Assembly (NCBI GenBank): GCA_963920765.1 | Contig: OY987251.1 | Coordinates: forward strand, 3,908,501-3,972,500 | DNA: 64,000 nt | Reading direction: 5' to 3' | From: Ulota crispa | Lineage: Eukaryota; Streptophyta; Bryopsida; Orthotrichales; Orthotrichaceae | In this document: positions 2,868 to 63,952 of the stretch, one piece after another | How the letters are laid out: each line of letters opens with the position of its first letter | Position numbering within the stretch: the first letter of the stretch is position 1 | Position numbers and translations under genes: made by a program | Notes under the pieces: model-generated | What the model was told of the DNA's origin: nothing | Database searches by the model: none | The model's input: only the letters and a program-made list of their open reading frames with translations

Positions 2868-4151
2868 CTAACTTTGATGTAGCTGATTGATTTAGCCCTT
2901 AAAAAGTTAACCCTTAGATAAACACAATGATTTTTTGACTTAAATAAACATGATTTTTTTTAAGGTTAGACATTATTACGGTTGAAAATCTTTTGGTCTA
3001 AAAAAATCTAGACTTTTAAGAATGAAACATATTTGATTGCCTAATATTTTTTATAATTGTTTTTGGAGGAAATCATCATAGGTTGTGATATGAATATCAT
3101 ATACTCCCTATGTCCCTCTAAAAACATCTAAATTAGACACATTATGTGTACCACTAAAAAGCTCCCATTTGCTAATTTCAAATGCTGAGAGAACGTTTGT
3201 TATTTTCAATGATCTCACGGGGGCAAATTAAGAGATCAAGGAGCATCCTCTCCTAGCAAGCTTGGTCTTGCCCATATGAGGTACCATTGTTGCTACTAAT
3301 TTTTAAATCATCAATAATGAGGTCACAACAAATACAAATATAGTGTTTTTTGCATGGAATTTGGGTGCCCAAACAGTTTCTTGTTGATATTCAATTTGAT
3401 TTTACAAGTATGTATATGATATATTTATCTACCTTCATGTAGATATGAACTTTCTATGTTCCTAAATACATGGAGATCTCTCCTTGTTTTGAATGTAGTC
3501 TATATCCCAACGTTTTGGATGTATATTTCAATGTTTGGCATATATTTCCAACTTGAATATATCTTTTGGAAGCGTCTCCCAATGTCTTGCAAAACGAATA
3601 TCTTTTATGAATTATCACCAGTGGATGTTGAATAATCCGCAAGTAGTTAATATATATGACATCTAATAACAATTTAAAAACTGAAATCATGCACATGATT
3701 CCTACTCATGATTTTGAATATCTTGTTTTCTTTTTCTTTTTTTAAGTATTCAACAGGATATGAAACACACCTTTTTATAGCACATGTGTATATTTGTTGA
3801 AAACTCCTCAAACCTTTTGGGGTTCATAAGCGCAGAAGCTATGGTGGCAGCAAACGCATGAGGAACATTACTTTGTTTTTGTGCAATTTTTTTGCTAAAA
3901 GGTGACATAATTTTTTTGAGAGAATATTTGGCAATAGATTCTTCCTTTTCAATTGGATGAGTTGCTCAATTACCCCACAATCTCGAGATGAAACCCCTCT
4001 TTCTAGATGAATGTGGACTAATTTTGACAAAAATAAAATTTCACCTGTATTTTGCACCTGGCATCCATCAAGATGTAAATTCACTTTCTCCTCTACCAAA
4101 CTCAATGAAAAGAAAAAGGGAGGATTTCATGGTAAACCTAAAGTTTGCAAT

Positions 4152-4405: not shown

Positions 4406-5163
4406 TGCTAGGAAATAAGGCAATTTTTGGGGGCCAAGGAAAAATATGTTGACAAATATTTGCCTAAATCTTTCCTCAAACTTTGACTAGCAATCATTAC
4501 ACTAGAAAATTTTGGTAAAAAAATGGATGATGTTGGCAAATTCTTCCTCAACTAAGCACCAGATTTACCAGATTTTGGATGAAGTTTACTGTTTACTAAC
4601 ATAAGTAGAAATAGACTTTATGAATGAATGTGTACGGGTCATAAATTCTATCCAGCTGTATCCAAATTTTCCTTACCTCGGGAGTAGCATTCTCTAAATT
4701 GGCTAAATTTAGCAAGATTGCTAACAAATTTTTCTTGTAGATTAAAAAAATGTAAGCTTTCCGATGTTAAATCTGAAAAATTTAGCTTTTTAGCAGTGTT
4801 TTTAGCCACTTGTGCTAAAAGTGAAATTCATATTTGGGATCACTGCTGGGGTGCGTGTCACTCTATTATCGAAAATACAAAAAATAAATTCAGTTCAGGA
4901 ATATCCATGAAAATTTCCCAAGGAGAAAACCATCATCGGGAACAAGATAAGAGAATAGACCCCACGTTCCCCGTACACATACACCGTACTATACGGATAG
5001 GATACGTATCTCGTGCTCTACTATCTGTTTTCCTGGCCAAGCTCCCTCTCTCGCTCTCTCTCTCCAGTCTCCACCCTCTTCACCTCACGCCATTTCCGTC
5101 GCCAATTCCCATTCTCTCCCTCAGAATCACAACTTCCTCAATTCCCTGATCGTCTCACACGCC

Positions 5164-21716: not shown

Positions 21717-21983
21717 TTTTATTTTTTGTAGGAAGTAAACTTGGCATAACCTTTGACTGCATAAAGGACAAGAATCCTTTTTAATTCTTTAGATTGAGTT
21801 GACATTGATAATGAAAAATTTGCAAAAGAAAATTGAAGAGAACACTAAATTTCACACTTCAAAAAAATGCACCTTTTAAGAGTTATTTTGTTGTTGTATT
21901 TGTAAAAGATCTTTCAAATCTTATAAATAAATGTAGATTTTTGTATCATTCTTCTACAATATACTAACATTTGTTTGTATGGC

Positions 21984-22676
21984 ATCCACCCCCCATCCAA
22001 ATGCAATCCACCTTCCATCCAAATGCAATCCACCTTCCATCCAAATGCAATCCACCTTCCATCCAAATGCAATCCACCTTCCGTCCAAACCGCATCCACC
22101 CTCCGTCCAAACCGCATCCACCCTCCATCCAAACCGCATCCACCCTCCATCCAAACCGCATCCCAAACCGCATCCACCCTTCATCCAAACCGCATCCACC
22201 CTTCATCCAAACCGCATCCACCCTTCATCCAAACCGCATCCACCCTTCATCCAAACCGCATCCACCCTTCATCCAAACCGCATCCACCCTTCATCCAAAC
22301 CGCATCCACCCTTCACCCAAACCGCATCCACCCTTCACCCAAACCGCATCCACCCTTCACCCAAACCGCATCCACCCTTCACCCAAACCGCATCCACCCT
22401 TCACCCAAACCGCATCCACCCTTCACCCAAACCGCATCCACCCTTCACCCAAACCGCATCCACCCTTCACCCAAACCGCATCCACCCTTCACCCAAACCG
22501 CATCCACCCTTCACCCAAACCGCATCCACCCTTCACCCAAACCGCATCCACCCTTCATCCAAACCGCATCCACCCTTCATCCAAACCGCATCCACCCTTC
22601 ATCCAAACCGCATCCACCCTTCACCCAAACCGCATCCACCCTTCATCCAAACCACATCCACCCTTCATCCAAATTG
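21984..22676. repeat. 22-bp minisatellite, about 31 copies
   Basis: The unit CATCCACCCTTCATCCAAAC plus CG repeats head to tail. Three zones differ in the unit: an initial zone with CCAAATGCAATCCACCTTC, a short CCTCCGTCC/CCTCCATCC zone, and a long zone alternating between CTTCATCC and CTTCACCC blocks. One partial unit (near 22158-22165) breaks the phase. Because 22 is not a multiple of three and the unit has no stop, all three plus frames are open through it; this is not a gene. Confidence 0.95.
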
Positions 22677-33810: not shown

Positions 33811-34411
33811 AGGAGAATTCTGGAAGCACAGTCTCCGATGCTACAGTGTCTTCGTCGTGTCTGCCTCCGTCCTCGTCACTGCTCCGGGCCTCCGGTCGGA
33901 AGCGCTGGGGTTTGTTACGCGAGCTCCGACTTCTCCCTCACCACCAGGTCTCCATTGGCACGCAAGCCTTCGCCGTATCGCTCTCCAGATGTGTGAGGAT
34001 TTCGTCGAGGTCGGAGAGAGCTTGGCTTCGGCGACTTATGTCTGGAGTGAGGGAGTTTGATCGCGTACGTGGCCATTCCTAATGGCGATTGGCTGTACCG
34101 CTTTGGAGTTGTGTGAGGGTTTGGTGGAGGTCGGAGAGAGAGCTTGGCTTCGGAGACTTATTCGTGGAGTGAGGGAGTTTGATCGCGAACGTGGCCATTC
34201 CTAACGGCCATTGGCTGTACCGCTTTGGAGCTGTGTGAGGGTTTGGTGGAGATCAGAGAGAGCTTGGCTTCGGAGACTTATTCGTGGAGTGCGGGAGTTT
34301 GACTGCGACGTGGCTAACCCTAACGGCGAGCTCAGGGAAATGTCGAGAGCCGGCTGTTGAGAGGGGATCGCTGCATTTGGAGCTGCTTGGTGGAATTTGG
34401 CGTTGCACGAG
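33811..34411 (+). promoter_or_regulatory. GC-rich promoter/leader region of the kinase-NLR gene (inferred)
   Basis: Composition rises abruptly in GC where repeat copy A ends. The region includes the 121-bp tandem repeat at 33985-34326 and ends in a consensus splice donor (GAG followed by GTGAGT at 34411/34412). I infer a non-coding leader exon spliced to the acceptor at 39385, just before the kinase coding exon. Small open frames in this interval have no recognisable domain. Confidence 0.35.
33985..34326 (+). repeat. 121-bp tandem repeat, nearly three copies
   Basis: The word CTTGGCTTCGG recurs at 34021, 34143 and 34263 (periods 122 and 120), with surrounding shared text GTGTGAGGGTTTGGTGGAGG, GGAGTGAGGGAGTTTGA and GCGATTGGCTGTACCGC-like blocks. 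A partial fourth copy may extend to about 34390. The unit is GC-rich and lies in the inferred promoter or leader. Confidence 0.85.
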
Positions 34412-39460: not shown

Positions 39461-42400
39461 ATGGCCAAACTTGTGAGAGTTGTGAAGGCTCTTGTATCAA
39501 AATTGTCAAGAGGGACAAATGGTTTGGGACATCCTTCTGCCACAAATAACAATGGTGTAAATGTGGAGGCTAGTCCTTTGGAAAATCTTGGTATTGGAAG
39601 ATGTGGTGGTGAAAGGTCAAACAATGCAAGAGGTTCTAGAAGTCTTTCCATGGAGCGGAATATTGGGGAGAATACAAGATCATCCAACCAAGGTCTCTTT
39701 GACTTGTCCAATGATGGTGGAGATGTGGAAATAGTCTCTATCAAGCTACCTTCCACTTTAGAAAGTGAGGATCCCTTCTTTCAATGGTATGAAGTGCAAA
39801 GCAAGAAGGTTGACCAAATATTGGCACAAGGTGAGAGGCAAATGTTGAATGCAAAGAAATGCCAGCATATGATCAAGAAACTTCGAGAAGCAGTGGATTT
39901 GATGTTGAAGATGATACGTGCATCTAGAAGAGCCAAGGAGTTCAATTGCATCTTGAAAGATCTATATCGAGTTGCCATGAAGGCATTTGCATTAGTAAAG
40001 AAGTGTGGAGGTGAAGACTTGGTTGTTGGAGCTGTTTATCAATTGGAGAACCAAGAATCCTTTCGAGAGTTGTTGTTGGAGTTGGAGTGTTGCTATAATG
40101 CATCATGTGCCTTGATCCATAAGATTCAACCTAAGTATGAGGTTAGGTCTTTGGACTTTGGTAATGCATCATATGTGGATGTTGAGCTTGATCAAGCAAC
40201 ATTGAAGGGGATGTTGGAGAATGTTGAGATTGTATCTCAAGCATCAAATGAGTCATCCAAGTTGAAGAAGTATCTGTTGAAGAGATTGAAGGACTTGGAG
40301 GAAGTACAAGGAGGTGAGTTGGACACATTGGAGTTTGCAGATTGTGGCGCGTTTGAGAAAGGCAAACAACTAGGTGAAGAGGGAGGGTATGGTTCAGTTT
40401 ATGAATCAAAGTGGTTGGGCTTGCCATGTGCTACTAAGGTCTTGCGTAGTGATGGAGATGAATGTGATGAGATGACTATGGCCAATTTTCGCAAGGAAGC
40501 AAGTATCTTGGCAGGCTTGAATCATCCAAATCTTGTAAAGTTCATGGGGATGGGAGTAGGTGACAAGGGATGGCCATTTTTGATGATGGAGAAGATGGAT
40601 AAGAGTGTGGCAAGCTTGATGAAGGAACACATCGAGGGAGATGGATATGGTCTTCCGCTTGATGTAGCAATTGATATCATCCAACAAGTAGCAAGTGGCA
40701 TGTATTACTTGCATGACATGCATGTTGCGCATCGTGACTTGAAGCTCGAAAATGTGTTGTGGATGAAGTTAGATGGGGGTGAGGAGTGCCATTCAAGTTT
40801 TGGTGGCTTTGGTAGTGTGAACTTGACGGATTTTGGGATTTCCAAAATTGAAGTGGGGGATGAGAGCTTGGTAGAGGCAGACAATATGGGCACCACAGTT
40901 TATAGGGCCCCGGAGACAATGAGAATATGTGGAGGTATGAAGGGAAGTTATTTTGCAGCGGATGTGTATTCATTTGGCATCATGTGTGCTGAGTTGTTGT
41001 ATGGGGTAGTGGAATTTGAACAACCATATGATTCTTGGAAGGACTTGTACAAGAAGATTGAAGGTGGCATGTGCCCCAAATTGCCAAGCGGTTGTGGAGA
41101 ATTTGCTACTTTGATAAGGCAATGTTGTTCTTTTCATCATGTGGAAAGGCCAACGTTTTTGGAAATATGGAAGCAAGTCACATGTTTGAAGACCAGCTAC
41201 TTAATAGGAGAGGAGTTGTGTTCACTCACGTGCTGTACAGACAAGGTATTATGGGGAATGTGTTTGCTTGAATGTTGTACAATATATGATGTTTTACCTT
41301 GATGAGGATTGAATTTAAATTTCATTTGTATTGGCTGTTTAAGCATTGAGTTGTTGGTGTTAATATCAAAAGGTGGGTGTTGTAGGTAAATGCAAGTGAG
41401 CAAGCTGAAGTGCATTCAAAGTTGTATGGTGTTGATGAGAAAGTCAAAGAGGTGCAAGTCTGTCTTGAAGGAGTAAATACTTTGGGCATTGTGGGTATGG
41501 GAGGAGTAGGTAAAAGCACTATTGCTCAAGCTATATTTGATGCAAAAGAAGGCAACCAAAAATTCAAGAAGAGATGCCTTCAGCATATTGGAATGCTTGG
41601 AAGTGATGAAGAATGCTTGGCAATATTGGAGAAGATGTTGGAGAAGTTGGATGTGAAAGTGAAAGTGGAAGACTTGGTGCATGGGAGAAGGGAGTTGGAG
41701 AAGGCCTTGAAAGAGAGCAACATCCTCCTCATATTGGATGATGTATGGAATGGGATCCATCTTAGCAACATCATTTCTCCAGGCACTTTATTGTTGTGTA
41801 GAAACTCAAGGTTGATTGTGTGTTCACGCAATTGGGATGTGATAAAAGATCATGCGGAAAGGAGATATGATATGCAACCATTGAGCGACAAAGAGTTGTG
41901 CATGAAGTTGTTCACTATGCATTGCTTTGGTGGTAGTGAGGGTGGCGTTCCAAAAGAGTTGGTTGAAGTGGGTGAACAAGTTGTGGAAGCTTGTAAGGGC
42001 TTGCCTTTGAGCTTGAAGGTACTTGGTGCATTCTTGCGTGGAAAGGAGAGATTGAGGAGTTGGGAGAGAGTGTTGCAGCGATTGAAAAGAGGGAGGTCAC
42101 CACAAGGTGGAGATGATTGGAGGATATTTGAGGTGTTGAAGATAAGTTTTGATGGGTTGGAGGAGTTGGAAAAGAGGATATTTTTGGACATTTGTTGTTT
42201 TTTCCTTGAAGATGTGTATGGTGAAAGGTTGTCAATAGACCATGATTGTTCCAGACAACTCACCCATGGAGAGAGTGCATTGATCAAAGCATTTGAGATG
42301 TTGATACATCGTTCGCTATTAGAAGTACATGATGGTATGTTAGGAATGCATGATCAACTTCGTGACATGGGTCGCAAGATTGTGGAGTGGAAGGTTCATG

Positions 42401-45400
42401 GTCAACATGGTTGTAGCGTTGGAGAGACAAAGTATGGTGGTACTCGACTTCATCATCTTGGTTCAAGAGAACTTGAGCAAATGAAAGAAAAGGTGAGGGC
42501 GTTCTATAAGTTTGATATGGCATGTTGTTATTTGGATGAAAATACTTTGAATTTGTTAATGCATAGAAGGTTCATAATTTCTTATTTTTGATATGTGGTT
42601 ATTTCATTAATTGGATAGCTTGAATGTATTTTGACATGATTGATTTTCAAATGGGTAGATTAATTGATGTGTTTTACAATTGGATTTCTAGGAGCTCATT
42701 ATGTGAAATGTTGTGTGTGACTAGAATTTTGATTTTGGGAAAGTTGAAGGCATTTCATGTGAAGTGTTGAGAGACAATGCCTCTTTGGAGAAGCTTTTGA
42801 TGGAAGGAGCATGTTCAAAATTGCGTATTTTGCTAATTCAAACAGGTATGGATGGACAAATTGCTTAATGGATGCTATGAAGTATTACATTATTTGGAGA
42901 AATTTGATGATGGTATTTAGCTAGATTTGATAAGTGTTAGCATGTTTATACACAAAGCTCTTTGCACATCAAAGAAATGTGTATGATATGAGTATTTAGA
43001 CTTGTTTTTCTTATGTGACAAGATTGGTGCAAATTCTATTAAACAAGAACATTGATTTATTTCACAAGGCTTGTGTCTCAATGTGTTACAATATTCTAAA
43101 TAAAGAGAAGAGGAGTTCTTTGCATTTTTTACTTTGTACAAGTTTCATGTGTAACACTCAAGTTCTAATAAATAATGACAAGCTTGAGGTTAAAAGAATT
43201 TGCAAAATGTAATGATGTTTTTAAAACTATTATTGTTGTGAATATTGTATTTGATTTTTGCATATGTATGTGTGTTGTTGCAAAATCTAAGGGTTTTTTA
43301 TATAAATTGTCAAATGTAGATTTCAAGAAAGTACCATTGAGCTTCACTAAATTGACAAGTTTGACAACATTGGAACTTTTCGGTGCTCAAATGGAAAGGT
43401 TACCAAAGGGATTGAAATATTTGAAGCTTGTGAGGTTTTTAAGACTCAGATTATGTGGCAAGTTGAAGTTTCTTTCCAAAGAATTGGCACATATGACATC
43501 TTTGACATCACTTGATTTGAGGGGGTGTTCCATACTATCGGCAATACCTAAAGAATTGGGGAACTTGTCATCTTTGACATCACTTGATTTGAGTGAGTGT
43601 TCCAAGCTATCAGCAATACCCAAGGAATTGGGGAACTTGTCATCTTTGACATCACTTGATTTGAGTTGGTGTTCCATACTATCAGCAATACCCAAGGAAT
43701 TGGGGAACTTGTCATCTTTGACATCACTTGGTTTGAGGGCGTGTTCCAAACTATCGGCAATACCCAAGGAATTGGGGAACTTGTCATCTTTGACATCACT
43801 TGATTTGAGTTGGTGTTCCATACTATCAGCAATACCCAAGGAATTGGGGTACTTGTCATCTTTGACATCACTTGATTTGAGTGAGTGTTATGAGCTATCA
43901 GCAATACCCAAGGAATTGGGGAACTTGTCATCTTTGACATCACTTGATTTGAGGGAGTGTTCCAAGCTATCAGCAATACCCAAGGAATTGGGGAACTTGT
44001 CATCTTTGACATCACTTGATTTGAGTTGGTGTTCCATCTTGTCAACAATACCCAAGGAATTGGGGAACTTGTCATCTTTGACATCACTTGATTTGAGTGA
44101 GTGTTATGAGCTATCAGCAATACCCAAGGAATTGGGGAACTTGTCATCTTTGACATCACTTGATTTGAGGGAGTGTTCCAAGCTATCAGCAATACCCAAG
44201 GAATTGGGAAACTTGTCATCTTTGACATCACTTGATTTGAGTGAGTGTTCCAAGCTATCGGCAATACCCAAGGAATTGGGGAACTTGTCATCTTTGACAT
44301 CACTTGATTTGAGTGGGTGTTCCATACTATCAACAATACCCAAGGAATTGGGGAACTTGTCATCTTTGACATCACTTTACTTGTGGGGGTGTTCCAAACT
44401 ATCGGCAATACCCAAGGAATTGGGGAACTTGTCATCTTTGACATCACTTGGTTTGAGTACGTGTTCCATACTATCAACAATACCCAAGGAATTGGGGAAC
44501 TTGTCATCTTTGACATCACTTGATTTGAGTTGGTGTTCCAAACTATCGGCAATACCCAAGGAATTGGGGAACTTGTCATCTTTGACATCACTTGATTTGA
44601 GTAGGTGTTCCATACTATCAGCAATACCCAAGGAATTGGGGAACTTGTCATCTTTGACATCACTTGATTTGAGTAGGTGTTCCATACTATCAGCAATACC
44701 CAAGGAATTGGGGAACTTGTCATCTTTGACATCACTTGATTTGAGTAGGTGTTCCATACTATCAGCAATACCCAAGGAATTGGGGAACTTGTCATCTTTG
44801 ACATCACTTGATTTGAGTGAGTGTTATGAGCTATCGGCAATACCCAAGGAATTGGGGAACTTGTCATCTTTGACATCACTTGGTTTGAGGGCGTGTTCCA
44901 TCCTATCAACAATACCCAAGGAATTGGGGAACTTGTCATCTTTGACATCACTTGGTTTGAGGGCGTGTTCCAAACTATCGGCAATACCCAAGGAATTGGG
45001 GAACTTGTCATCTTTGACATCACTTGATTTGAGTTGGTGTTCCAAACTATCGGCAATACCCAAGGAATTGGGGAACTTGTCATCTTTGACATCACTTGAT
45101 TTGAGTAGGTGTTCCAAACTATCAGCAATACCCAAGGAATTGGGGAACTTGTCATCTTTGACATCACTTGATTTGAGGGAGTGTTCCAAGCTATCAGCAA
45201 TACCCAAGGAATTGGGGAACTTGTCATCTTTGACATCACTTGATTTGAGTTGGTGTTCCATCCTGTCAACAATATCCAAGGAATTGGGGAACTTGTCATC
45301 TTTGACATCACTTGATTTGAGGGCGTGTTCCAAACTATCAGCAATACCCAAGGAATTGGGGAACTTGTCATCTTTGACATCACTTGATTTGAGTGAGTGT

Positions 45401-47464
45401 TATGAGCTATCGGCAATACCCAAAGAATTGGGGAACTTGTCATCTTTGACATCACTTGATCTGAGTTGGTGTTCTATCCTATCAACAATACCCAAGGAAT
45501 TGGGGAACTTGTCATCTTTGACATCACTTGGTTTGAGGGCGTGTTCCATCCTATCAACAATACCCAAGGAATTGGGGAACTTGTCATCTTTGACATCACT
45601 TGGTTTGAGGGCGTGTTCCAAACTATCGGCAATACCCAAGGAATTGGGAAACTTGTCATCTTTGACATCACTTGATTTGAGTTGGTGTTCCAAACTATCG
45701 GCAATACCCAAGGAATTGGGGAACTTGTCATCTTTGACATCACTTGATTTGAGTAGGTGTTCCATACTATCAGCAATACCCAAGGAATTGGGGAACTTGT
45801 CATCTTTGACATCACTTGATTTGAGTGAGTGTTATGAGCTATCGGCAATACCCAAGGAATTGGGGAACTTGTCATCTTTGACATCACTTGGTTTGAGGGC
45901 GTGTTCCAAACTATTGGCAATACCCAAGGAATTGGGGAACTTGTCATCTTTGACATCACTTGATTTGAGTTGGTGTTCCAAACTATCGGCAATACCCAAG
46001 GAATTGGGGAACTTGTCATCTTTGACATCACTTGATTTGAGTAGGTGTTCCATACTATCAGCAATACCCAAGGAATTGGGGAACTTGTCATCTTTGACAT
46101 CACTTGATTTGAGTAGGTGTTCCATACTATCAGCAATACCCAAGGAATTGGGGAACTTGTCATCTTTGACATCACTTGATTTGAGTGAGTGTTATGAGCT
46201 ATCGGCAATACCCAAGGAATTGGGGAACTTGTCATCTTTGACATCACTTGATTTGAGGGAGTGTTCCAAGCTATCAGCAATACCCAAGGAATTGGGGAAC
46301 TTGTCATCTTTGACAGCACTTGATTTGAGTGAGTGTTATGAGCTATCGGCAATACCCAAGGAATTGGGGAACTTGTCATCTTTGACATCACTTGGTTTGA
46401 GGGCGTGTTCCATCCTATCAACAATACCCAAGGAATTGGGGAACTTGTCATCTTTGACATCACTTGGTTTGAGGGCGTGTTCCAAACTATCGGCAATACC
46501 CAAGGAATTGGGAAACTTGTCATCTTTGACATCACTTGATTTGAGTTGGTGTTCCAAACTATCGGCAATACCCAAGGAATTGGGGAACTTGTCATCTTTG
46601 ACATCACTTGATTTGAGTAGGTGTTCCATACTATCAGCAATACCCAAGGAATTGGGGAACTTGTCATCTTTGACATCACTTGATTTGAGTGAGTGTTATG
46701 AGCTATCGGCAATACCCAAGGAATTGGGGAACTTGTCATCTTTGACATCACTTGGTTTGAGGGCGTGTTCCAAACTATTGGCAATACCCAAGGAATTGGG
46801 GAACTTGTCATCTTTGACATCACTTGATTTGAGTTGGTGTTCCAAACTATCGGCAATACCCAAGGAATTGGGGAACTTGTCATCTTTGACATCACTTGAT
46901 TTGAGTAGGTGTTCCATACTATCAGCAATACCCAAGGAATTGGGGAACTTGTCATCTTTGACATCACTTGATTTGAGTAGGTGTTCCATACTATCAGCAA
47001 TACCCAAGGAATTGGGGAACTTGTCATCTTTGACATCACTTGATTTGAGTGAGTGTTATGAGCTATCGGCAATACCCAAGGAATTGGGGAACTTGTCATC
47101 TTTGACATCACTTGATTTGAGGGAGTGTTCCAAGCTATCAGCAATACCCAAGGAATTGGGGAACTTGTCATCTTTGACAGCACTTGATTTGAGTGAGTGT
47201 TATGAGCTATCGGCAATACCCAAAGAATTGGAGAATTTGTCATCTTTGACATCACTTGGTTTGAGGGCGTGTTCCAAACTATCAGCAATACCCAAGGAAT
47301 TGGGGAACTTGTCATCTTTGACATCACTTGATTTGAGTGAGTGTTATGAGCTATCGGCAATACCCAAAGAATTGGAGAACTTGTCATCTTTGACATCACT
47401 TGATTTGAGGGCGTGTTCTAAACTAACGGCTATACCCAAGAAATTGGCGAACTTATCTCATTAG
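39461..47464 (+). CDS. Protein kinase-NB-ARC-LRR immune receptor (kinase-NLR)
   Basis: Four exons (39461-41245, 41386-42492, 42725-42845, 43320-47464) join in frame to 2385 residues. Residues 1-297 form a low-complexity start and a helical region (about 110-290). A Ser/Thr kinase spans about 298-575: glycine loop GEEGGYGSV (305-313, with Glu at the second glycine position), Lys326, HRD 424-426, DFG 457-459, APE 483-485, so it is probably active. NB-ARC follows: P-loop GMGGVGKST (632-640), Walker B LLILDDVW (Asp713/714), GLPL 800-803, IFLDICCFF, and MHD 916-918. From 1070 to the end come 55 uniform 24-residue LRRs. This is the moss-type kinase-NLR (PNL) class; such proteins are thought to sense pathogens and signal through the N-terminal domain. 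The ATG at 39461 is preferred; the frame extends ten codons upstream without ATG. Splice sites are GT..AG throughout. Ligand and signalling are unknown. Confidence 0.9.
43514..47461 (+). repeat. LRR array: 55 in-register 72-bp units
   Basis: Unit starts fall at 43514 + 72k for k = 0-54 with no insertion or deletion; the last unit is cut at the stop. The consensus residue unit is DLSxCSxLSAIPKELGNLSS plus LTSL. Variation between units is concentrated in five codons: D/G/Y, S/R/W, E/W/R/A/G/T, S/Y and K/I/E. An A/T difference in the SAIP/STIP word appears mostly with the Ile type. Elsewhere nearly all units share the same bases, with a few silent alternations (TCA/TCG, GGGAAC/GGAAAC). Units 29-40 and 41-52 form an 864-bp tandem duplication. 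The two LRRs before 43514 are ordinary and diverged. Confidence 0.97.
45530..47219 (+). repeat. 864-bp higher-order tandem duplication in the LRR array
   Basis: Twelve units (45530-46393) recur as 46394 to about 47219 with the same order of cassette types. They even share rare marks: TTGACAGCAC at 46310 and 47174, CTATTGGCA at 45911 and 46775, and GGGAAACTTG at 45646 and 46510. By eye the copies look identical or nearly so. Confidence 0.9.
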
Positions 47465-62629: not shown

Positions 62630-63952
62630 TTGCGAGGATTGTGTCAGCAAGTGCAGGTTGCCCTTGAGGTTGATTTTTTGAACATCATGGTTGGCATACT
62701 CTTCCATGAAACACCCTTTTGGCCACTCCCCAAAGAAGAGGCTATCTTATTTGGCCAACTGCACCTTAGGGTAGTAGCTCACTTGAGAGAGCTAGAAACA
62801 ATGCGGTACTCTATGCCACGGATCATGTGGCCAAAGACAAATGCATACATGGACTCAAACTTTGAACGCATGTCAGAGGGCGACTTTTGATAGCAATGTC
62901 AGATGGACCGCAACTCGTTCTGGCAATTGTGCATGCTTCTGGAAGCAAATCCAATTTTCCACAACAACTCAATTGTTCAGCAGAGGGCCATTGGAATCCA
63001 AGTTGCAGTGGCAGTGGAGTGCTTTGGTAACGATGGTAATGGTGCGTTTGGCGGCTCAATCAAAAGGATCTATGGCATCGGATACGGCACGGTGAGTCTT
63101 TACACCAATCGCGTGATCACGACGCTTGTCGACATTGCTGCACAGGTGGTACGGTGGTCGTCAAATACAGAGGGCCAAGCAATAAAGATAACATTTGCCA
63201 AAGATGGCTTCTTTGAGTGCAACAACTTGATTGACGGCACGCACATCTGCCTAAGTAAGCGCCTTGGTGGAACCAGCGCAAAGACGTACCTTGACCAAAA
63301 ACACAACTACTCGATTGGTGCGCAAGTCATTTGTAACAATGAGCACCGGATTTGGTACCTTCACATTGGATATCCAAGCAGCTGTGCCGACATCTCGGTG
63401 TTTTGAGAGATGGACCTATGCAAGCGTGCCCACCTGTACTTTTGGAAAGGCGAGTATCTCCTTGTTGACTTAGCATATCCATCAACGCCAACTAGCGTTC
63501 CTCTCTATAACTCTATAAGGGTGCAGATGCATGGCAGGACCAAATACGCCGTTTCAACTTTTGTGCTGCGCATGTCCGTGTTGCCAATGAGCACTGCATT
63601 GGCTTGTGGAAGGGAACGCTTTGCATTGTTGAGGGAATTGCGGCTAGTTTCAAGAAGGAAGACTGTAGAGGCGGACGTTGCACACGCAATACGGTGGACA
63701 GTGGCTTGCACGGTGTTGGGAAACTTGTTGATCAATTGGAGGGATGAGTGGAGGGATGAAATGGACAAAGTTGACCATCAAAACAAAGAGGAAGATGAAA
63801 ACGAAGATGCACGGCTTATTTCTCCGCAGGAGCAAGCAGAGATTTACCACATAAGCTCCAACAAAGGACAAGCGTTTAGAGAGCGCATCAAGGACGGTTG
63901 CTTACATCACCAAACGATGGATGCAAATAGTTTCCTAAATATCTCTATGTGA
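62630..63952 (+). pseudogene. Broken PIF/Harbinger (HARBI1-type) transposase
   Basis: The translation resembles the HARBI1/PIF nuclease. A helical N-terminal part (NSFWQLCMLLEANPIF) is followed by LIDGTHICL with the first catalytic Asp (codon 63233-63235), HNYSIGAQVICN, YLLVDLAYP with the second Asp (63467-63469), and, in a different frame, RVANEHCIGLWKG with the expected Glu (codon 63589-63591). Disruptions seen: a frame break near 62890 upstream of the main frame, an in-frame TGA at 63404-63406, and a frameshift between about 63535 and 63560. It is therefore inactive as read. The family recognises TIRs and inserts at TTA/TAA sites, so intact relatives elsewhere could mobilise the Tourist-like MITEs. 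The companion Myb-like protein of Harbinger elements is not in the window, and terminal repeats were not found. Confidence 0.8.

What the first reader, a model, noticed from the sequence alone, without database searches (positions are those of the whole stretch)
43514..47461. Cassette-like LRR array: 55 identical-length units varying at five codons
Seen: 55 units of exactly 72 bp without a single indel. The backbone is nearly invariant at the DNA level. Differences concentrate in five codons per unit (consensus LTSLDLSECSKL, positions 5, 7, 8, 10 and 11). I count about 14 residue combinations reused many times (commonest: D-S-E-Y-E 11 times, D-S-R-S-I nine, G-R-A-S-K seven, D-S-W-S-K six). Known: in LRRs, positions 5, 7 and 8 face the ligand on the concave sheet; fungal NLR-like proteins (for example het-e/het-d WD40 arrays) and TAL effectors have high-identity repeats with variable recognition residues. 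Inference: this is a modular recognition surface kept uniform by unequal exchange or conversion and diversified at contact positions, possibly a fast-evolving specificity system in a plant receptor.
Basis: partly seen in the sequence, partly recalled or inferred. Interest (0 to 1): 0.92.

Follow-up and report, generated by a model that had tools for sequence, protein, structure and literature searches.

The report
Plant immune receptor with near-identical repeats
A gene from what is probably a moss looks like an intracellular immune receptor and carries 55 almost identical leucine-rich repeats that differ mainly at exposed positions; close sister genes have very different repeat numbers, which suggests a plant counterpart of the fast-changing repeat receptors known from fungi.

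Summary
In detail: 55 units of 72 bp at 43502-47461 (+), no indel, 29 distinct DNA units, mean identity 91.7%, 70% of differences in five codons, 85% in seven. The array fills the last exon of a predicted 2,385-aa kinase-NB-ARC-LRR gene of the moss PNL kind, with its phase-0 intron. Cassette reuse is partly an exact 874-bp repeat at 864-bp offset. Seventeen further arrays, of four backbone types, were read in the same genome; positions 5, 7 and 8 vary in 14 of 14 tabulated. Paralogue pairs with nearly unchanged flanks differ in array length: 34 vs 6 units (4 mismatches in 5,568 flank bases), about 20 vs 40, 26 vs 37 at 98% flank identity. Best reading: a recognition surface remodelled by in-register unit exchange and diversified at exposed residues, working like fungal het-d/het-e repeats but made of LRRs. 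Formal positive selection is only moderate; dN/dS within the same codons is near 1 in three of four sets. Ligand, expression and population variation are untested. Listings of ten paper searches showed no such moss arrays.

The parts
39461..41245 (+). Predicted exon 1 (start codon not verified): N-terminal region and protein kinase domain, about 40352-41173; HRD and DFG motifs present (motif names recalled)
   Evidence: Pfam Pkinase E 3.7e-37; ORF; gene model open to the stop
41246..41385 (+). Predicted phase-0 intron between the kinase and NB-ARC exons, the feature given for the moss PNL class
   Evidence: GT..AG and frame read from sequence; PNL feature from Xue 2012
41386..42492 (+). Predicted exon 2: NB-ARC (about 41464-42153) and winged-helix domain (about 42157-42384)
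   Evidence: Pfam NB-ARC E 1.2e-32, WHD_ROQ1 E 3.3e-6
42725..42845 (+). Predicted small exon 3 (linker)
   Evidence: Splice sites and frame by inspection; a similar 'EGIS/EGIY' segment opens the frames of C3, C6 and C7 paralogues
43320..47464 (+). Predicted terminal exon 4: a few divergent LRR-like turns, then the whole cassette array and the stop codon
   Evidence: ORF 43175-47464; splice model; Pfam LRR families
43502..47461 (+). Array of 55 x 72-bp (24-codon) LRR units, consensus LTSLDLSECSKLSAIPKELGNLSS; variable codons 5, 7, 8, 10, 11, less so 13 and 14
45486..46359 (+). First copy of the perfect 874-bp direct repeat (end of unit 28, units 29-39, most of unit 40)
46350..47223 (+). Second copy of the perfect 874-bp repeat (end of unit 40, units 41-51, most of unit 52), offset 864 bp

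Best explanation
The array is the C-terminal sensor of an intracellular kinase-NB-ARC-LRR receptor (moss PNL kind). Its last exon behaves as a coding satellite: exchange in exact 72-bp register (unequal crossing-over or gene conversion) adds, removes and copies single units and blocks of units, which keeps the backbone uniform and lets array length and cassette order change while the rest of the gene hardly changes. Each unit folds as one LRR turn; the positions on or next to the beta-strand (5, 7, 8) and the following loop (10, 11) hold most unit-to-unit differences. Shown here: gene architecture, uniform register, a recent block duplication, different array lengths in near-identical paralogues, localisation of variation, predicted LRR fold. 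Inferred: the variable face binds non-self or altered-self ligands, binding switches the NB-ARC, and the kinase signals; turnover plus selection on cassettes generates recognition specificities, as in fungal het-d/het-e receptors.
For: Domains in order kinase, NB-ARC, WHD, LRR; one open model of 2,385 aa with GT..AG introns. Array and block repeat. Thirteen further arrays in the same genome; 543 of 555 detected spacings over 14 arrays are exactly 72 bp and positions 5, 7 and 8 vary in 14 of 14; four more arrays with the same 72-bp period. NB-ARC matches next to 18 of 18 arrays read and kinase matches next to 17 of 18. Paralogue pairs: C10 3.77 vs 3.80 Mb, flanks 4421/4423 and 1143/1145 identical, 34 vs 6 units, the six readable as an in-order subset (0-2 differences each, some with several equal matches); C3 2.72 vs 2.75 Mb, 5' flank 3075/3077, about 20 vs 40 unit lengths; C10 2.96 vs 2.995 Mb, flanks 98%, 26 vs 37. 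Backbones differ by locus within subfamilies: 0 or 1 of 300 label permutations reach the observed net difference in 24 of 25 pairs (permutation treats units as independent). Diversity: nonsynonymous at 5, 7, 8 over array-wide synonymous is 1.10-6.06 in 14 arrays, against 0.16-0.66 for the other 19 codons, 10 and 11 left out. Only 2.0% of residues at 5, 7, 8 are V/I/L/M/F/P/C, though 27.8% of one-step nonsynonymous changes would give these or a stop. AlphaFold2 of the first 14 units: pLDDT 90.3, strand at unit positions 3-5, helix at 17-21; best structural matches are LRR proteins.
Against: No ligand, expression or population data. Tree-based counts do not prove positive selection: dN/dS using silent changes in the same codons (5, 7, 8) is 3.45 in the window (one silent event only) and 0.85, 0.96 and 0.71 in the three other sets; in 4 of 14 arrays same-codon synonymous diversity at 5, 7, 8 exceeds the nonsynonymous. 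With single-nucleotide changes, the nonsynonymous rate at 5, 7, 8 over the silent rate elsewhere is 1.07 (p 0.49, window), 1.62 (p 0.006, C10 set), 1.34 (p 0.011, C6/C7 set) and 0.97 (p 0.60, C3), on trees of units that recombine. Codon 13 varies mostly silently and 10 and 11 also show silent change. Within a subfamily the locus signal is small (net 0.09-0.51 of 57 nt in the C6/C7 set), and some between-array means are no larger than within-array means (9.8 against 10.7 of 72 for C6 17.32 and C7 17.97). The array difference between duplicates may have arisen with the duplication, in one or few steps, so no rate is measured. Some sister genes look broken: frameshift in the C10 3.27 array, stops in NB-ARC or kinase matches at C10 3.30, 2.96, 2.995 and 3.99 (introns could cause some). 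A 2025 review holds that canonical NLRs are absent from mosses and that mosses lean on other immunity (passages). Which process (crossing-over, conversion, slippage) acts is not resolved.
Confidence: 0.6

Rival explanations
1. Neutral coding minisatellite: unequal exchange homogenises the array and the exposed positions are merely free to drift; array length and cassette identity have no recognition role.
For: dN/dS within codons 5, 7, 8 is near 1 in three of four sets; several paralogues look broken; codon 13 is mostly silently variable.
Against: Backbone constrained (other 19 codons 0.16-0.66 of silent diversity); aliphatic residues strongly depleted at 5, 7, 8 (2.0% against 27.8% of one-step outcomes, which include stops); nonsynonymous rate at 5, 7, 8 exceeds the silent rate elsewhere in the two largest sets (p 0.006 and 0.011); the same positions vary in 14 of 14 arrays.
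Confidence: 0.22
2. Scaffold or dosage reading: the long LRR solenoid is a structural platform (multimerisation, intramolecular inhibition, kinase substrate docking) and unit number tunes size rather than specificity.
For: 55 near-identical units would give a long regular solenoid (inference); the helix positions 17-21 are almost invariant.
Against: Does not explain why diversity is focused on 5, 7, 8 in 14 of 14 arrays; near-identical duplicates differ almost six-fold in length.
Confidence: 0.1
3. Assembly artefact: unit numbers and block duplication come from mis-assembly of a repeat.
For: Reads were not available; short-read assemblies of such arrays are unreliable in Podospora (abstract and introduction).
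Against: 275 Mb in 157 contigs suggests long reads (inference); intact 1,429-aa frame over 55 units; many loci with distinct backbones and lengths; the array is only about 4 kb.
Confidence: 0.05
4. Targeted mutagenesis of the variable codons (a regional hypermutation mechanism).
For: Variation is confined to a short stretch of each unit; the silent rate at 5, 7, 8 is also somewhat raised in the C10 and C6/C7 sets.
Against: Interleaved codons 6 and 9 have silent and replacement rates at or below the rest of the unit in all four sets, so the pattern follows codons, not a region; variants are also spread by whole-unit copying.
Confidence: 0.03

Closest known systems
Moss PNL (kinase-NBS-LRR) class, Xue et al. 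2012 PMC3352924 and Tanigaki et al. 2014 PMC3991678
   Same: Domain order and phase-0 intron between kinase and NBS
   Different: Near-identical, length-variable LRR arrays are not mentioned in the parts read (abstracts and named sections); Tanigaki's homology search with a P. patens gene gave 8,594 LRR-like sequences
Podospora anserina HNWD receptors het-d, het-e and het-r (NLRs with high internal conservation; PMC1805685, PMC12222747)
   Same: NLR-type sensor of repeats over 80% identical, hypervariable codons at the predicted interaction surface, a gene family, repeat-number variation
   Different: WD40 repeats, NACHT and HET domains in a fungus; here LRR, NB-ARC and kinase in a plant, with up to about 100 unit lengths rather than about 11; function there proven, here not
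Melon Vat / Pm-w NLRs with R65aa repeats (PMC10807702)
   Same: Highly conserved LRR repeats whose number (1-7) varies, probably by unequal crossover, and goes with specificity (passages)
   Different: CC-NLR, 65-aa repeats within a conventional LRR domain, few copies
Highly variable NLRs of Arabidopsis (hvNLRs, PMC8226289)
   Same: In one example gene, variability at LRR positions 3, 5, 7, 8 and at 8, 10 (passage)
   Different: Allelic variation in conventional divergent LRRs, not between near-identical tandem units
Lamprey variable lymphocyte receptors, tomato Cf-2/Cf-5 and TAL effectors (recalled; no sequence fetched)
   Same: Similar unit lengths or modular repeats with variable recognition residues (recalled)
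   Different: Somatic assembly, extracellular receptors, or a DNA-binding code; no homology tested

Membership tests
Moss PNL class (PK-NBS-LRR) | N-terminal protein kinase domain | tested here: met
   Pfam PF00069, E 3.7e-37
Moss PNL class (PK-NBS-LRR) | Central NB-ARC | tested here: met
   Pfam PF00931, E 1.2e-32, then WHD_ROQ1
Moss PNL class (PK-NBS-LRR) | C-terminal LRR domain | tested here: met
   Pfam LRR families; AF2 LRR fold
Moss PNL class (PK-NBS-LRR) | Phase-0 intron between kinase and NBS | tested here: met
   Predicted intron 41246-41385, GT..AG, phase 0, by inspection; no transcript data
Moss PNL class (PK-NBS-LRR) | Genome is a moss | tested here: inconclusive
   An LHCII of the genome scores best, after one 620-residue chain (9vfj_2), with 8htu_U and 7xqp_a (409 bits against 394 for the next); that these two are Physcomitrium patens is recalled
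Moss PNL class (PK-NBS-LRR) | NBS clusters with P. patens PNL genes | not testable with these tools
   No P. patens NBS sequence was at hand
Fungal HNWD receptors (het-d/het-e/het-r) | HET domain, NACHT, WD40 repeats | tested here: not met
   Kinase, NB-ARC and LRR instead; works like, is not a member
NLR with high internal conservation (as a mode of evolution) | Repeat units over 80% identical within a gene | tested here: met
   91.7% mean in the window; mean over 80% in 12 of 14 arrays
NLR with high internal conservation (as a mode of evolution) | Few hypervariable codons at the interaction surface | tested here: met
   Positions 5, 7, 8 in 14 of 14 arrays; strand at 3-5 in the model; that this is the ligand surface is established LRR knowledge, not measured
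NLR with high internal conservation (as a mode of evolution) | Positive diversifying selection at these codons | tested here: inconclusive
   raised replacement, moderate p values in two of four sets, same-codon dN/dS near 1 in three of four sets
NLR with high internal conservation (as a mode of evolution) | Repeat-number polymorphism among individuals | not testable with these tools
   Only paralogues in one genome: 34 vs 6, about 20 vs 40, 26 vs 37
hvNLR (Prigozhin and Krasileva) | 10 or more alignment positions above 1.5 bits across ecotypes | not testable with these tools
   Definition; one genome only

The most novel reading that the evidence does not exclude
Moss kinase-NLRs form a plant recognition system of the het-d/het-e kind: array length and cassette order differ between individuals and set recognition specificity (of pathogens, symbionts or other moss individuals), so that each lineage carries its own repertoire created by unequal exchange of LRR cassettes and selection on three exposed residues per unit.
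Probability: 0.4. Interest if true: 0.86.

Novelty: new variant of a known kind. Interest (0 to 1): 0.64.

Why it matters
Plant NLR specificity is usually discussed in terms of point changes and allelic series in divergent LRRs. Here a class of plant NLRs appears to use highly uniform, easily resized LRR arrays with variation focused on the exposed strand. A fungal survey reports high internal conservation as enriched in WD, ANK and TPR repeats of fungal NLRs, found no LRR motifs there, and puts highly conserved repeats of those three types at 0.4% in green plants (passages of PMC4986451). If confirmed, this is a convergent solution with a different fold; it would also explain why LRR parts of moss NLRs may be missing from older annotations (inference), and it offers plants with a haploid body and good genetics in which cassette order can be linked to recognition.

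Tried and rejected
Hypermutation of a region: rejected because interleaved codons 6 and 9 stay at or below background. Cassettes reused independently throughout: partly rejected, because 11 whole units and most of a twelfth are a block copy. Exchange between loci as the main force: little support, since at most 3 exact units are shared by any two of 14 loci. A relative outside plants: one scan of genome contigs gave 26 loci of bacterial LRR proteins, best-segment identity at most 53%. A first pattern with GAA in codon 8 found nothing in the genome; a backbone pattern gave 218 places. Comparing residue composition with base composition was uninformative because the base composition is itself shaped by the residues. 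Naming the species was not possible. Paper searches, judged from their listings, without a description of such arrays in mosses: (open-licence PMC only); 11 papers were opened in part. Looked at without use: DeepLRR (passages).

Rows left out: C10_3.99 (4 units, degenerate) from the tree sets, the composition counts and the pairs; C10_3.80 from the pairs. The pre-array unit of C10_3.80 was counted as a seventh unit and in the composition and internal-repeat counts; it was dropped from the trees and. Units with stops were dropped from the trees. The four loci are not. The C8 locus at 15.28 Mb was not fetched.
Full report
WHAT IS THERE. Tandem Repeats Finder reports one array of period 72 at 43497-47454. 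In register with the reading frame there are 55 units of 24 codons at 43502-47461, every spacing 72 bp, inside a 1,429-aa open frame whose stop codon follows the last unit. There are 29 distinct DNA units and 22 distinct protein units, mean pairwise identity 91.7% over 1,485 pairs. Codons 1, 2, 4, 9, 15 and 19 are identical in all 55 units. Codons 5, 7, 8, 10 and 11 hold 70% of all pairwise differences, and 85% with codons 13 and 14.

BLOCK DUPLICATION. Units 29-39 and 41-51 are identical at DNA level. The exact repeat is 874 bp at an offset of 864 bp, 45486-46359 and 46350-47223. Shorter exact repeats link units 15-19 with units 35-38 and 47-50. Part of the cassette reuse is therefore copying of blocks: without units 41-52 the commonest combination falls from 11 to 8.

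THE GENE. Upstream frames match a protein kinase (PF00069, E 3.7e-37), NB-ARC (E 1.2e-32) and a Roq1-type winged-helix domain (E 3.3e-6). By inspection I place exons at 39461-41245, 41386-42492, 42725-42845 and 43320-47464. All three introns are GT..AG and the joined frame is open for 2,385 residues with one stop at its end. The start codon and any upstream exon are not verified and there are no transcript data. The kinase/NBS intron is phase 0, the feature that Xue et al. 2012 give for the moss PNL class (results section read; they suggest the class is moss-specific, section 12; kinase-NLRs of monocots are noted by Chia et al., passages). An LHCII gene of the same genome scores best, after a 620-residue chain (9vfj_2), with chains 8htu_U and 7xqp_a, 409 bits against 394 for the next. 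That these two are from Physcomitrium patens is recalled. I take the genome (275 Mb, 157 contigs) to be a moss; this is an inference.

PARALOGUES IN THE SAME GENOME. A backbone pattern with up to 3 mismatches occurs 218 times, and a four-unit protein query gave 187 matches, a lower bound. I read 13 further arrays in full or in part: C10 at 2.96, 2.995, 3.27, 3.30, 3.77, 3.80 and 3.99 Mb, C6 at 17.32 and 11.46, C7 at 20.75, 20.67 and 17.97, and C3 at 3.65, and four more (C3 at 2.72 and 2.75, C8 at 15.18, C6 at 11.39). Together with the window that is 18 arrays. NB-ARC matches lie next to all 18, and kinase matches next to 17 (none listed for C6 11.39). Over the first 14 arrays, 543 of 555 detected spacings are 72 bp. 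Backbones fall into types: IPKELGNLSS on C10, with many VPKELGNLSS units at 2.96 and 2.995; LPEGVGNLTS on C6 and C7, with V-A before it; the same with T-S before it on C3; LPEAFGNLVA on C8. The C6 17.32 Mb array spans about 100 unit lengths, but only part is in one open frame.

DIFFERENT ARRAYS IN NEAR-IDENTICAL GENES. C10 3.77 and 3.80 Mb hold duplicates of one kinase-NLR gene in opposite orientation. Their flanks agree at 4421 of 4423 sites on the 5' side and 1143 of 1145 on the 3' side, without gaps, yet the arrays have 34 and 6 units. The six units can be matched in order to units 1, 8, 30, 31, 33 and 34 of the longer array, with 0, 2, 0, 0, 1 and 2 differences; some have several equally good partners. 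C3 2.72 and 2.75 Mb agree at 3075 of 3077 sites upstream of arrays spanning 20 and 40 unit lengths; their downstream parts align poorly (999 of 1,235 sites, 134 gap columns). C10 2.96 and 2.995 Mb have 98.07% and 97.90% identical flanks and 26 and 37 units. The window gene and its nearest paralogue at 3.99 Mb have 97.2% identical 5' flanks (88.1% on the 3' side), 55 against about 4 to 5 units, and the latter's kinase match has a stop. Two cautions: gene conversion of the flanks could make them look young, and the array change could have come with the duplication itself; a rate is not measured. Either way the arrays differ where the flanks do not.

CONCERTED EVOLUTION. On the 19 backbone codons, locus labels separate units more than permuted labels do in 24 of 25 within-subfamily pairs (0 or 1 of 300 permutations reach the observed value); the exception is C10 2.96 against 2.995 (24 of 300). 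The permutation treats copied units as independent, and the locus signal is small in the C6/C7 set (net 0.09-0.51 of 57 nt). Some between-array means there do not exceed within-array means (9.8 of 72 between C6 17.32 and C7 17.97, against 10.7 within C6 17.32). The subfamily signal is large: about 25-29 of 72 between the well-filled C10 arrays and those of C6 and C7, against 6.0-8.9 within those C10 arrays. Identical units are rarely shared between loci, 0 to 3 per pair, so exchange appears to be mostly within a locus.

SELECTION. Pairwise diversity gives a nonsynonymous value at codons 5, 7 and 8 of 1.10 to 6.06 times the array-wide synonymous value in 14 arrays (2.59 in the window), and 0.16 to 0.66 for the other 19 codons (10 and 11 left out). 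The two lowest ratios are from the smallest arrays. In 4 of 14 arrays the synonymous value at 5, 7, 8 themselves exceeds the nonsynonymous. Counting events on trees is less favourable. With silent changes in the same codons, dN/dS at 5, 7, 8 is 3.45 in the window (18 replacements, 1 silent), 0.85 in the C10 set (which includes the window), 0.96 in the C6/C7 set and 0.71 at C3. Using single-nucleotide changes only, replacement at 5, 7, 8 relative to silent change elsewhere is 1.07 (p 0.49), 1.62 (p 0.006), 1.34 (p 0.011) and 0.97 (p 0.60). Units recombine, so these trees and p values are approximate. Two observations speak against plain drift: only 2.0% of residues at 5, 7, 8 are V, I, L, M, F, P or C, although 27.8% of one-step nonsynonymous changes would lead to such a residue or a stop, and the interleaved codons 6 and 9 do not share the elevation. 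I conclude: strong focusing on exposed positions, probable but not proven diversifying selection.

FOLD. AlphaFold2 on residues encoded by 43322-44509 (the flank and 14 units, single sequence) gives pLDDT 90.3 and pTM 0.85. In each cassette the strand lies at unit positions 3-5 and the helix at 17-21. Foldseek against the PDB lists LRR proteins such as SHOC2, Leptospira LRR proteins, internalin A and plant receptor ectodomains; a few of the 50 rows are large complexes whose chain is not named. Sequence search returns plant LRR receptor kinases, SHOC2, Roq1 and others. That positions 5, 7 and 8 face the concave side is established LRR knowledge (recalled) and fits the strand register; coordinates were not measured.

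COMPARISON. Podospora het-d/het-e receptors have repeats over 80% identical, four hypervariable codons at the predicted interaction face, variable repeat number and concerted evolution (PMC1805685 abstract and part 2 of the results; PMC12222747 abstract and introduction). By its anatomy the array here works like these, but it is not a member: LRR for WD40, NB-ARC for NACHT, kinase for HET. Dyrka et al. [quoted passage not shown] whether they looked at plant LRRs I did not see. In plants the nearest case I saw is melon Vat with 1-7 conserved 65-aa LRR repeats whose number goes with specificity (passages). In an Arabidopsis hvNLR the variable LRR positions are 3, 5, 7, 8 and 8, 10 (passage). Persi et al. 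report fast divergence of repeats within proteins as general, and 24 aa as the dominant repeat period in Arabidopsis (passages). Chia et al. describe kinase-NLRs of non-flowering plants and a modest, variable cell-death response to a P. patens kinase domain (passages). Against an NLR role, a 2025 review holds that canonical NLRs are absent from mosses, while listing kinase-NBS-LRR genes in P. patens (passages). The listings of ten paper searches showed no description of such arrays in mosses; the library holds open-licence papers only.

VERDICT. Real, recent and repeated in this genome: a known class of NLR with an unusually uniform and readily resized LRR array. New variant of a known kind; the recognition role is the likeliest reading and is testable.

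Noticed in passing
G000 C10 3.77 and 3.80 Mb (L070/L025/L045 and L069/L067): Duplicate kinase-NLR genes in opposite orientation, arrays about 28 kb apart, with 4 mismatches in 5,568 flank bases but 34 against 6 LRR units: a good pair for studying the mechanism.
   Followed up: yes
L061 (G000 C6:17320501-17328500): An LRR array of about 100 unit lengths, part of it in a 2,345-aa open frame, downstream of kinase and NB-ARC matches; the fetched stretch ends soon after the last detected unit.
   Followed up: partly
window 43548-45455 and 45474-47399, minus strand: Long open frames (635 and 641 aa) opposite the array; probably a side effect of a stop-free 72-bp period, not genes.
   Followed up: no
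window 62894-63403: Weak DDE_Tnp_4 match (E 4.9e-5, just below the family cut-off), next to an open frame at 63407-63949 without a Pfam match: perhaps a fragment of a Harbinger-like transposase (that name recalled).
   Followed up: partly
window 21982-22673: A 22-bp minisatellite of about 23-32 copies, open in all three forward frames.
   Followed up: no
window 33990-34327: 122-bp tandem repeat, 2.8 copies, upstream of the receptor gene.
   Followed up: no
G000 C4:21.39-21.77 Mb: Eight of the best chlorophyll a/b-binding matches lie within 0.4 Mb.
   Followed up: no
L074 (G000 C8:15183001-15189000): A more distant kinase-NB-ARC gene (35% NB-ARC identity) with 32 units of exactly 72 bp but a different backbone (LPEAFGNLVA) and higher divergence (15 of 72): the 24-codon array seems old, its homogeneity recent (inference).
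   Followed up: partly
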